A stretch of DNA of 64,000 bases from Sphingomonas faeni (lineage in GTDB: Bacteria; Pseudomonadota; Alphaproteobacteria; Sphingomonadales; Sphingomonadaceae): NCBI RefSeq assembly GCF_030817315.1, contig NZ_JAUSZF010000001.1:1844501-1908500 (forward strand), read 5' to 3'. Positions 45,608 to 52,983 of the stretch are shown piece by piece. Below the pieces are notes generated by a model. The model was not told the origin of the DNA. It ran no database searches and saw only the letters and a program-made list of their open reading frames with translations. Made by a program: the position numbers and the translations under genes. The first letter of the stretch is position 1. Every line of letters begins with the position of its first letter.

Positions 45608-45703
45608 GGGGCGTGCCGGGTGGCGCGTGGCACGTGGCGCGGCGGATGGCGCGGCCGGCGACCCCCTTGGAACCTGCTGATACGGATCAGACCCGCCGTT
45701 CTG

Positions 45704-45822
45704 CTCCCCTCCCTGGAAGGGAGGGGTTGGGGGTGGGTCGGCTTCCGCGCATCCGAACCGTCGTGGCTCAATCAGGCCAACCCACCCCCTGCCCCTCCCT
45801 TCCAGGGAGGGGTGAAGTTCTG
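45704..45822. repeat. Palindromic repeat, family E
   Basis: Arms CCCCTCCCTGGAAGGGAGGG and CCCCTCCCTTCCAGGGAGGG are flanked by TTGGGGGTGGG and its complement. It lies between the radical-SAM gene and the convergent VOC pseudogene; the remaining gap (45608-45703) holds nothing I recognise. Confidence 0.85.
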
Positions 45823-49752: not shown

Positions 49753-49832
49753 GTTTTCCTGCGGACGCAGGAATCCAGGGCTACGGGCGGCGGCATTCGT
49801 AACCCTGGGCTCCTGCGTTCGCAGGAGAACGG
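49753..49832. repeat. Palindromic repeat, family D
   Basis: Arms TTTTCCTGCGGACGCAGGAA and GGCTCCTGCGTTCGCAGGAG enclose CCAGGGCTACGGGCGGC and AACCCTGG. It follows the gcvPB stop and may work as a terminator of the gcv operon. Confidence 0.85.
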
Positions 49833-49841
49833 AGCCGCGAT

Positions 49842-51503
49842 TTACTCCGCCGCCTGCGCCAGCGGAGACGGCTCCTTCCAGACCAGCACCGGCTTCCGCG
49901 CCGCGAGCGTCTCGTCGAGGCGCGCGCGGGGGGCGAAGTGGGGGGCGGTCTTGAGGCTGGGGTCACCGGCTTTCGCGCGTTCGGCGACCGAGCGGAGCGC
50001 GGCGATGAACTGGTCGAGCGCTGCCTTCGATTCGGTCTCGGTCGGTTCGACCAGCATCGCGCCGTGGACGACGAGCGGGAAATACATCGTCATCGGGTGG
50101 AAACCCTCGTCGATCAGGCCCTTGGCGATGTCGATCGTCGAGAAGCCGGCGGCGAGGCCCGAATCCGAGAACAACGCCTCGTGCATGCACGGACCCGATG
50201 GCCCGAACGGTGCGTCGAGCGTGTCGTCGAGGCTGCGCAGGATGTAGTTCGCGTTGAGCACCGCGTCCTCGGACACCTGGCGCAGGCCGTCGGCGCCATG
50301 GCTCAGGATGTAGGTCAGCGCGCGCGTGAACATCCCCATCTGGCCGTGGAACGCGACCATACGCCCGAAGCTGCCTGCGTGGTGTTCGTCGGCATTTTCC
50401 TCTTCGACGAGGACGAATTGGTCGCCCTGCTTCTCGACGAACGGGAGCGGTGCGTAGGGAGTCAAAGCCTCCGAGAACACCACCGGGCCCGAGCCCGGAC
50501 CACCGCCGCCGTGGGGCGTCGAGAAGGTCTTGTGGAGGTTGATGTGCATCGCGTCGATGCCGAGATCGCCCGGCCGGACGCGGCCGACGATCGCGTTGAA
50601 GTTCGCGCCGTCGCAATAGACGAAGCCGCCCGCCGCGTGCACCGCGTCGGAGATCTCGCGCATGTCGCGCTCGAACAGGCCGCAGGTGTTGGGGTTGGTG
50701 ATCATCACGCCGGCGACGTCGGGGCCGAGCCGGGCCTTCAGCGCGGCGGTGTCGACGCGGCCTTCGGCGGTGGCGGGGATGTCCTCGACGCTATAACCCG
50801 CGAACGCGGCGGTGGCGGGGTTGGTGCCGTGGGCGCTCTCAGGGACGAGGATGATCTTCCGCGCGCCCTCGCCCTTGGCTTCGAGTGCCGCGCGGATCGC
50901 GAGGATGCCGCAGAGTTCGCCGTGCGCGCCCGCCTTGGGGCTCATCGCGACCGAGGTCATGCCGGTGAGCGTGACGAGCCAATGCGCGAGTTGGTGGATG
51001 ACTTCCAATGCGCCCTGGACGGTGTCGACCGGCTGGAGCGGGTGGACGTCGGAGAAACCGGGCAGCCGCGCCATCTTCTCGTTGAGGCGCGGGTTGTGCT
51101 TCATGGTGCACGAGCCGAGCGGGAAGAAGCCGAGGTCGATGCCGTAGTTCTGGCGCGAGAGGCGGGTGTAGTGGCGGACTGTTTCTGGTTCGGAGAGACC
51201 TGGGAGGCCGATTGGGTTGTTGCGGGCGAGACCGGCCAAGCGGCTTAACCCTCTCCCCTCCGGGGAGAGGGTTGGGTGAGGGGCTGTTCCGGGCGCAGCA
51301 TTGCTGGGCTGCCCCTCACCCCGACCCTCTCCCCGGAGGGGAGAGGGAGACGCAAAATCGACGCCGGTGGTGTGGTTGTCGCCGATCTCGAAGATCAGCG
51401 CCTCTTCCAGCATCAGCGCCTTGTTGCCGGTTACCGATGCTGGGACGTTACCCGCGTTCGCCTCGGGCGAGGTCGGGCGCCAGCCGCTCTGGTTGATGCT
51501 CAT
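49842..51503 (-). CDS. gcvPB: Glycine dehydrogenase (decarboxylating) subunit 2, with in-frame repeat insertion
   Basis: GcvPB is the PLP-binding half of the split P-protein; it decarboxylates glycine in the glycine-cleavage system. The 553-residue product has the PLP lysine in [16 protein letters not shown] at residue 325, and [20 protein letters not shown] in the N-terminal half. Residues 52-85 ([13 protein letters not shown] to TLSPEGRG) are encoded by a family E repeat copy, an insertion not present in ordinary GcvPB, where the chain goes directly from the GVD segment to GLAR. The flanking family residues are intact. Its ATG overlaps the gcvPA stop by four bases. Confidence 0.95.
51246..51349. 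repeat. Family E palindrome inside gcvPB
   Basis: Arms ACCCTCTCCCCTCCGGGGAG and the complement ending GGAGGGGAGAGGG flank a spacer of about 45 bases. It contains no stop in the gcvPB frame and adds about 34 residues (52-85). Confidence 0.85.
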
Positions 51504-52858
51504 GCCAGTATCTCCTGGAGTGCGGACGCAAGCGTTTCGACGTCCTCCGCGGTAGTCGTTTCCGTCACGGCGACGACGAGGCCGTTCGCGAGCGCGTCTT
51601 CGCCGGGGTAAAGCCGCCCGAGCGACACGCCGGCTAGGATACCGCGGTCGGCGAGCGTGCGGACGACGGGGCGGGCCTCGGTCGGGAGCTTCAGCGTGAA
51701 CTCGTTAAAGAAGCTGTCGTTGACGAGCTCGACGCCGGGGATCTGCGACAGGCGTTCGGCAGCAGAAACCGCCCCCGCGTGGTTGATCTCCGCCAACTGG
51801 CGCAGGCCGGCTTCGCCGAGCAGCGTCATGTGGATCGAGAAGGCCAGCGCGCAGAGGCCGGAGTTGGTGCAGATGTTCGACGTCGCCTTTTCGCGGCGGA
51901 TGTGCTGCTCGCGGGTCGACAGCGTCAGCACGAAGCCGCGGCGGCCGTCCGCGTCGACGGTCTCGCCACACAGGCGACCGGGCATCTGGCGGACGTATTT
52001 GTCCTTGCAACCAAAGAGCCCGACATAAGGTCCGCCGAACTGGAGGCCGACGCCGAGCGACTGGCCTTCGCCGACGACGATGTCCGCGTCCATCTCGCCG
52101 GGCGAGGTGATCGCGCCCAAGGCAACCGGCTCGGTGACGACCGCGATCAGCAGCGCCTTCTTCGCGTGGCACGCGTCCGCGAGCGGGCGCAGGTCGGCGA
52201 TGCGGCCGAGGATGTCGGGGTACTGGACGACGACGCACGACGTATCGTCGTCGATCTTGGCGATCAACTGGTCGAGGTCCATGTCCGCCGCCAGCTCGGG
52301 CGCGGCGGTGTCGAGCACGTCGCCGGTGAACTTGGCCATCGTCTTCGAGACCGAGACGTAATGCGGGTGGAGGCCCGAGGACAGGATCGCCTTGCCACGC
52401 TTGGTGATGCGCCGCGCCATCACGATCGCTTCCCAGCACGCGGTCGAGCCGTCGTACATCGAGGCATTGGCGACGTCGGTGCCGAGCAGCCGCGCGACCT
52501 GCGTCTGGAACTCGAACAGCATCTGCAGCGTGCCCTGCGCGATTTCCGGCTGGTACGGCGTGTAGGCGGTGAGGAACTCGCCGCGCTGGATCAGGTGATC
52601 GACGCTGGCAGGAACGTGATGCTTGTACGCGCCGCAGCCGAGGAAGAACGGCGCTTCGCCGGCGGTAAGGTTCTTTTTCGCGAGCGCCGACATGTGGCGT
52701 TCGACCGCCATTTCGGAGGCGTGCATCGGCAGGTCGCGGACCGGGCCGTCGAGACGGGCGGCTTCGGGGACGTCGACGAAGAGGTCGTCGATCGTCGCGG
52801 CGCCGATGACGGCGAGCATCGCCTCGCGGTCGGGCTGGGTCAGGGGAAGGTAGCGCAT
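51500..52858 (-). CDS. gcvPA: Glycine dehydrogenase (decarboxylating) subunit 1
   Basis: GcvPA is the N-terminal half of the split P-protein and pairs with GcvPB. The 452-residue protein begins [20 protein letters not shown] and has [40 protein letters not shown] and ALTLGEAG-like [18 protein letters not shown] regions of the family. The start is ATG 52858 or the close ATG 52864; a family E repeat ends just before it, so its last bases (GGGGGGAGTCG) also make the Shine-Dalgarno. The frame continues upstream only through the repeat. Its stop overlaps the gcvPB ATG. Confidence 0.95.
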
Positions 52859-52868
52859 CGGCATCGAC

Positions 52869-52983
52869 TCCCCCCTCCCGCATGCGGGAGGGGTCGGGGG
52901 TGGGCGCCCGGCTTCAAACGGGCGGAACGCTGGAGGAGAGCGCGCGCCCACCCCCTGCCCCCTCCCGCTAGCGGGAGGGGGTT
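52869..52983. repeat. Palindromic repeat, family E, between gcvH and gcvPA
   Basis: Arms CCCCTCCCGCATGCGGGAGG and the complement ending CTAGCGGGAGGGG lie about 60 bases apart. It is part of the gcv mRNA and would form a hairpin between gcvH and gcvPA, touching the gcvPA ribosome-binding site. Confidence 0.85.

What the first reader, a model, noticed from the sequence alone, without database searches (positions are those of the whole stretch)
51246..51349. Palindromic repeat read in frame inside gcvPB
A family E palindrome of about 104 bases, of the same type as intergenic copies at 45704 and 52869, lies within gcvPB and adds about 34 residues (52-85, [12 protein letters not shown] to PTLSPEGRG) without a stop codon or frame loss. 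The conserved residues on both sides are present, so the operon seems to tolerate a repeat-made peptide, as described for the palindromic elements that enter genes in Rickettsia.
Basis: partly seen in the sequence, partly recalled or inferred. Interest (0 to 1): 0.8.

Follow-up and report, generated by a model that had tools for sequence, protein, structure and literature searches.

The report
Palindromic DNA repeats inside housekeeping enzymes
A small mobile-looking palindromic DNA repeat sits in frame inside an enzyme gene of a Sphingomonas bacterium, and the same loop of that enzyme holds other, partly unrelated palindromic repeats in related species, so repeat DNA seems to keep landing in, and becoming part of, the same protein loops.

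Summary
A 104-nt palindrome (fold z -10.4) lies in frame in gcvPB and encodes residues 52-85. Residues 1-41 are under purifying selection in seven insert-bearing orthologues (dN/dS 0.11), so the gene starts upstream and, by inference, the repeat is translated. Correction: the copies at 45701 and 52871 share only the layout.

The wider pattern is stronger. The same GcvPB linker holds a palindrome in 27 of 160 Sphingomonas genomes, of four peptide families (A-D) that form at least three groups without DNA similarity. A tree of the flanks needs 17 presence/absence changes, 13 forced. Of 38 N-free inserted linkers 36 keep the frame; G249 and G287 do not. In ValS one loop shows several such peptides among close relatives, and the family-A peptide also sits in GlyS, MurD, IleS, MetH, MurB and HrpB.

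Best reading: REP/RPE-like selfish palindromes that survive in tolerant loops as loosely constrained passengers. In-frame coding palindromes are known (Rickettsia RPEs, intragenic REPs); a landing site filled repeatedly by several families is the new variant.

The parts
51246..51349 (-). Family-A palindromic element inside gcvPB; codes residues 52-85 (S52 to G85)
51249..51276 (.). First inverted arm, itself a hairpin (CCCTCTCCCC-TCC-GGGGAGAGGG plus G-rich tail)
   Evidence: I8
51320..51347 (.). Second inverted arm
   Evidence: I8
49842..51503 (-). gcvPB, glycine dehydrogenase subunit GcvPB (553 aa) carrying the insert
51500..52951 (-). gcvPA ORF upstream in the operon, overlapping the gcvPB start by 4 nt; the GcvPA match begins at ORF residue 32, so the real start is probably near 52858
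52871..52981 (.). Palindrome between gcvH and gcvPA; same layout as 51246-51349 but no BLAST match with it or with family C
   Evidence: (I10)
45701..45817 (.).
   Evidence: (I3)
49753..49832 (.). Family-B palindrome directly downstream of gcvPB; 90% identical to the family-B insert inside gcvPB of relative G023
   Evidence: G000:C1:1894253-1894332

Best explanation
The insert is one copy of a REP/RPE-like palindromic repeat (two hairpins in inverted order) that entered gcvPB in frame and is read as a 34-residue passenger in a tolerant N-terminal linker. Such repeats of several families scatter through Sphingomonas genomes; copies that land in genes survive mainly where the frame is kept and the protein loop tolerates them, so the same loops of core enzymes are found occupied again and again by different families. 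After landing, the peptide evolves under weak constraint and the palindrome decays or is trimmed. Shown: the in-frame insert, uninserted relatives, several families at one site, frame conservation in nearly all, selection on both flanks, a relaxed insert, no compensatory pairing changes. Inferred: that the peptide is translated, that the copies move as elements, and that tolerance rather than target choice makes the site recur. The mover is unknown.
For: Element in frame, no stop. Multi-copy: family A in the own genome; B in 4 of 5 genomes searched, C in 5 of 5, D in 7 of 7. Short linker in 75 of 116 genomes of the site table. Inserts in 27 of 160 census genomes: A 10, B 7, C 4, D 6 (families assigned by me from peptides; 23 linkers read in full, G066 not read, G109 cut by a contig end, G161 and G183 with N runs). 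Tree of flanks, 112 rows: 17 presence/absence changes, 13 forced by well-supported branches; the 7 D rows in 7 separate places. Of 38 N-free inserted linkers 36 keep the frame. dN/dS 0.11 upstream, 0.64 insert, 0.03 downstream (family A, 7 genomes); 0.18, 0.59, 0.04 (family B, 7 genomes). Of 246 pair cells 224 unchanged, 3 one-sided, 0 compensatory, 19 broken. D-bearing genomes are no more alike beside the site than they are to uninserted ones (0.82 and 0.81 in the first 60 nt downstream). Four further own-genome copies in frame in murD, the PDH E2 gene, valS and glyS. Family-A peptide in 64 proteins: GlyS 32, ValS 8, MetH 8, MurD 7, IleS 3, MurB 3, GcvPB 2, HrpB 1.
Against: No protein-level evidence. 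Two inserted genes are off frame: G249 (80% complete, a shift inside its family-A copy) and G287 (99% complete, one contig, a shift at a family-C remnant; sequencing error or a really broken N-terminus). No target duplication seen by eye in 22 aligned copies, so transposition is not shown. No Y1 (RAYT-type) transposase, PF01797, in the own genome; 3 of 37 genus genomes and 7 of 24 others in the order have one. A, B, D and none interleave in one tight clade, so exchange of linkers may inflate the event count. A and C are distantly related (73% over 116 nt), so the four families are not four independent sequence origins. Tolerance alone may not explain so many hits at one loop.
Confidence: 0.78

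Rival explanations
1. True insertion hotspot: the mobilising machinery prefers the DNA of these linkers, or existing palindromes there attract others, so target choice rather than protein tolerance makes the sites recur.
For: Several families at one linker, a nested second palindrome in G142, and a family-B copy directly 3' of gcvPB in the window genome and near its 3' end in G095 and G195, whose in-gene inserts are also family B.
Against: Entry points differ by several codons within the linker (by eye); no shared target motif noticed; ValS, with a different sequence, shows a similar pattern at peptide level.
Confidence: 0.25
2. The insert is functional: a hairpin in the mRNA or the Pro/Gly-rich peptide is selected for, for example tuning GcvPA/GcvPB translation.
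For: The inserted linkers folded all form strong hairpins (-55 to -145 kcal/mol); the site is ~150 nt after the start codon.
Against: 133 of 160 census genomes show no such insert (five of them have linkers 4-7 codons longer than usual that I did not read); no compensatory changes; insert dN/dS about 0.6.
Confidence: 0.1
3. Few old insertions, spread by recombination of gcvPB alleles between species, rather than many separate landings.
For: A, B, D and none interleave within one tight clade.
Against: D-D identity beside the site is not above D-none identity; A-A, B-B and A-B identity are 0.94, 0.93 and 0.93 in the first 100 nt downstream.
Confidence: 0.2
4. Artefact: the real gene starts downstream, or the gene is broken.
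For: The insert is near the N-terminus; G249 and G287 show frame breaks.
Against: dN/dS 0.11 on residues 1-41 and 0.03 downstream in seven orthologues including the window; frame kept in 36 of 38 N-free inserted linkers.
Confidence: 0.03

Closest known systems
Rickettsia palindromic elements (RPE)
   Same: Palindromic repeats of ~150 bp, several families, read in frame inside genes of core function; taken from passages of the review PMC10969869. The original Ogata papers were not read: one was looked up and is not held.
   Different: Sphingomonas instead of Rickettsia; no sequence comparison with RPEs was made; here one protein loop holds different families in different species.
Intragenic GTAG/CGTC REPs (PMC3733652; section 15 and passages read)
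   Same: REPs read in frame within known genes of many bacteria, including tRNA synthetases of S. alaskensis and E. litoralis; suggested there to be neutral in flexible loops; recB of two Xanthomonas species holds different REPs at about the same site; CGTC REPs lack a dedicated transposase.
   Different: The family-A consensus shows no CGTC or GTAG end tag (by eye). That paper found other genes of one category hit at different sites, whereas the gcvPB linker is hit by several families over many species. Its Additional file 3 could not be read, so gcvPB may be listed there.
REPINs with RAYT transposases (PMC3116915 and PMC2817692, search listing only; the two-hairpin layout is recalled)
   Same: Two inverted hairpins separated by a short spacer.
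   Different: No RAYT-type gene (PF01797) found in the own genome.

Membership tests
RPE-like coding palindromes (as a kind) | Palindromic repeat in multiple genomic copies | tested here: met
RPE-like coding palindromes (as a kind) | In-frame location inside conserved genes, absent from orthologues | tested here: met
   gcvPB; in-frame copies in four more genes: (absence from orthologues there seen for ValS only)
RPE-like coding palindromes (as a kind) | Translated in the mature protein | not testable with these tools
   indirect only: frame and selection on both flanks
Rickettsia RPE (sequence family) | Sequence homology with RPE families | not tested
   no RPE sequence was compared
CGTC-tagged REP | CGTC tetranucleotide at one end of each hairpin | tested here: not met
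   family-A consensus ends CTCCCTC/GAGGGAG; by eye, family A only
REPIN mobilised by RAYT | RAYT (Y1 transposase, PF01797) in the genome | tested here: not met
   0 matches in the own genome; control rings in 5 of 14 genomes
REPIN mobilised by RAYT | Two inverted hairpins | tested here: met
MITE | Target-site duplication | tested here: inconclusive
   none seen by eye in 22 aligned copies; no statistical test

The most novel reading that the evidence does not exclude
Certain loops of core enzymes (GcvPB, ValS, and perhaps GlyS, MurD, IleS and MetH) are standing docking sites for palindromic repeats in Sphingomonas: different repeat families repeatedly enter, replace one another, nest and are trimmed at the same loop, so that repeat DNA is a steady source of new protein segments in these bacteria.
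Probability: 0.38. Interest if true: 0.78.

Novelty: new variant of a known kind. Interest (0 to 1): 0.65.

Why it matters
With one or a few insertions per gene, chance, tolerance and target choice cannot be told apart. Here one linker offers at least 13 forced gain/loss changes, several families, uninserted relatives and shortened remnants, in a metabolic enzyme of a genus with many genomes. That makes the question of how repeat DNA becomes protein directly testable. It also warns annotators: peptides such as [12 protein letters not shown] or PTLSPEGRG in these proteins come from repeats, can be real in-frame inserts, and are not evidence of shared domains.

Tried and rejected
Rfam: nearly all matches on the palindrome were microRNA-hairpin models, all below their gathering scores, so no RNA family. 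AlphaFold on a 51-row sphingomonad alignment gave a weak model (mean pLDDT 64.9, residues 45-84 under 50); I draw no conclusion from it and ran no fold search. By sequence the best solved relative (1wyt chain B) aligns only from query residue 94 on, so the insert lies N-terminal of the aligned part. RAYT as mover: not supported. Target duplications: none seen by eye. Conserved RNA structure: rejected for the family-A orthologues. Literature searches listed no paper on coding palindromes at a shared site in Sphingomonas; several matched many more papers than the 15-20 listed, most subscription papers are not held, and no supplementary file could be read.

Errors found on re-check: the first tree (116 rows: 20 changes, 15 forced) contained G109 with a wrongly cut upstream flank and three doubtful rows (G161, G249, G287); these four were dropped and the tree rebuilt (112 rows: 17 changes, 13 forced), and only that is used for counts. 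G287 was first taken as a remnant; it is off frame. I had called the families unrelated; A and C are distantly related, and the two B representatives compared (G023, G113) do not match each other. In one search the windows more than 100 nt upstream were compared without alignment and are not used. In one search not all of the 80 named loci gave a readable linker; I made no count there.

Full report
What is there. The window belongs to a Sphingomonas genome (G000; the genus by the names on its nearest proteins). On the minus strand lie gcvT, gcvH, gcvPA and then gcvPB, ORF 49842-51503, 553 aa, which passes the NCBIfam GcvPB cut-off with 681.5 bits. Inside it, 51246-51349 is a palindrome of two hairpins in inverted order; as RNA it folds at -90.6 kcal/mol, z -10.4, with 0 of 200 shuffles as stable. 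It is read in frame as residues 52-85. Family A, as I call it, has 23 full copies among the 30 own-genome stretches that I looked at, with consensus ends CTCCCTC/GAGGGAG (22 copies aligned).

It is an insert. In my site table of 116 genomes, which is enriched for inserts, 75 have a short segment (28, 30 or 31 residues) between the conserved EIG and GLPG motifs. The window and six close relatives carry family A there (57 residues). The net gain is 29 codons although the element spans 34, so the original linker was not kept whole.

It is most likely translated. In seven family-A orthologues dN/dS is 0.11 for residues 1-41, 0.64 for the insert and 0.03 for the 300 codons after the linker; in seven family-B orthologues 0.18, 0.59 and 0.04 (Nei-Gojobori counts summed over pairs). 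Selection on both flanks means that translation starts upstream and goes through. A frame-blind measurement on DNA found 37 of 39 long linkers to be a multiple of three (114 of 116 rows measured). In that measurement one short row was off frame. On re-check G287, a family-C remnant, has a frame shift in a 99%-complete single-contig genome and is probably that row. Leaving out G161 and G183, which have N runs, 36 of 38 inserted linkers keep the frame; the exceptions are G249 (80% complete) and G287.

The same linker holds other palindromes. Among 160 genus genomes taken in list order (80, 80, of 294 besides the window's), 27 have an inserted linker: family A 10, B 7, C 4, D 6. Families were assigned by me from peptide patterns (G109, G161 and G249 by hand; G066 from its match). 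Of the 27, 23 linkers were read in full; G066 was not read, G109 is cut by a contig end, G161 and G183 have N runs. Five more genomes have linkers 4-7 codons longer than usual and were not read. B reads SPANAGAQ...PGFLRSQEN and kin, C APPLQGRGWGGAV...PSPEGEG, D ILPGTGRGT...PPPRAGED. By BLAST of eight representatives, A and C are distantly related (73% over 116 nt), while B and D match neither of these nor each other beyond one 16-nt hit; the two B representatives (G023, G113) do not match each other. So there are at least three groups without detectable DNA similarity. Of 37 inserted linkers, 33 show inverted arms of 17 nt or more by a simple measure; G087, G093, G162 and G204 gave 11-13. The families are multi-copy where tested: D in 7 of 7 genomes, C in 5 of 5, B in 4 of 5, none in G113 for that query. 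G142 carries a second palindrome nested in its family-A copy, also in frame. Shortened forms (G087, G162, and the proteins P0044 and P0100) look like in-frame trimming.

How many landings. A tree of the flanks without the linker (112 rows, quick IQ-TREE) needs 17 presence/absence changes, 13 of them forced by well-supported branches; A needs 9 (5 forced), B 9 (4), C 3 (2), and the seven D rows lie in seven separate places (7 forced). The changes may be gains, losses or exchanges. In one tight clade A, B, D and none interleave, which could be allele exchange; but identity beside the site is not higher within families (A-A 0.94, B-B 0.93, A-B 0.93 in the first 100 nt downstream), and D-D identity is not clearly above D-none identity (0.82 and 0.81 in the first 60 nt downstream, 0.80 and 0.84 in the 60 nt upstream).

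It is not only gcvPB. In the own genome four more family-A copies lie in frame within recognised genes: murD, the PDH E2 gene, valS and glyS. The left arm is read in the same frame in all five (PSPLRGEG); the right arm reads PTLSPEGRG in gcvPB and murD and in another frame in the other three. I tested 13 frames from 10 copies besides the window's; a further one, in serA, lies before the domain and is probably outside the gene, and the other frames had no domain. The remaining 12 of the 23 copies were not tested. A database search with residues 51-92 found 64 proteins, sorted by me from Pfam domains and loops as GlyS 32 (at two different sites), ValS 8, MetH 8, MurD 7, IleS 3, MurB 3 (as a C-terminal tail), GcvPB 2, HrpB 1. 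For ValS the best 120 of 7863 hits were listed, which favours close relatives; 114 of them were read at the loop between GW and YPNDVL: 25 uninserted, 44 family A, 24, 10 and 9 of three other peptide types, and 2 other A-like. So a second essential enzyme shows one loop filled by several peptide types; there I saw peptides only, not the DNA.

How it most likely works. These look like REP/RPE-like selfish repeats. Most copies that hit genes should be lost; those that land in frame in a tolerant loop stay as passengers. The insert evolves fast, and its pairing is not maintained (0 compensatory, 19 broken of 246 cells), which argues against a selected RNA hairpin. What moves them is unknown: the own genome has no Y1 transposase. 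A family-B copy directly 3' of gcvPB in the window, and copies near the 3' end of the gene in G095 and G195, which have family B inside it, hint at short-range copying; this is a lead only.

Known and new. In-frame coding palindromes are known from Rickettsia (review PMC10969869, passages read), and intragenic REPs from many bacteria including sphingomonads (PMC3733652, section 15 and passages read), where neutral insertion in loops was suggested and one case of different REPs at about the same site (recB of two Xanthomonas species) was noted. New here is the scale: one linker with several families and at least 13 forced changes, and a second enzyme that looks like it. I found no report of this in the searches listed under Tried and rejected; the supplementary gene list of PMC3733652 could not be read.

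Noticed in passing
L002:288-2729 (own genome, around C1:255672): mraY runs without a stop into murD in the same frame (MraY match at aa 37-353, MurD match from aa 446), with a family-A palindrome at aa 404-438; a real fusion, a recent indel or a sequencing error.
   Followed up: partly
window 49753-49832: A family-B palindrome sits directly downstream of gcvPB and is 90% identical to the family-B insert inside gcvPB of relative G023; G095 and G195 have family B inside the gene and another copy about 1.5 kb further on.
   Followed up: partly
L090 (G142): A second palindrome is nested inside the family-A copy in gcvPB, again in frame (82-residue linker).
   Followed up: partly
L097 (G287): gcvPB has a frame shift at a family-C remnant in a 99%-complete single-contig genome; the downstream frame stays open far upstream, so a new start or a sequencing error is possible.
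   Followed up: partly
P0121-P0183: GlyS beta subunits carry the family-A peptide at two separate sites (near residue 377 and at 639 or beyond); three MurB proteins end with it as a C-terminal tail.
   Followed up: no
P0186-P0299: The ValS loop between GW and YPNDVL holds at least four different repeat-like peptides in different Sphingomonas.
   Followed up: partly
L105:348-2279(-): A family-A palindrome lies in the open frame upstream of the serA domain, probably in its leader.
   Followed up: no
L232, L237, L244: Other Sphingomonadaceae have long GcvPB linkers of other make-up (L232 58 residues and repeat-like; the two Qipengyuania rows 43 residues, palindrome not tested).
   Followed up: no
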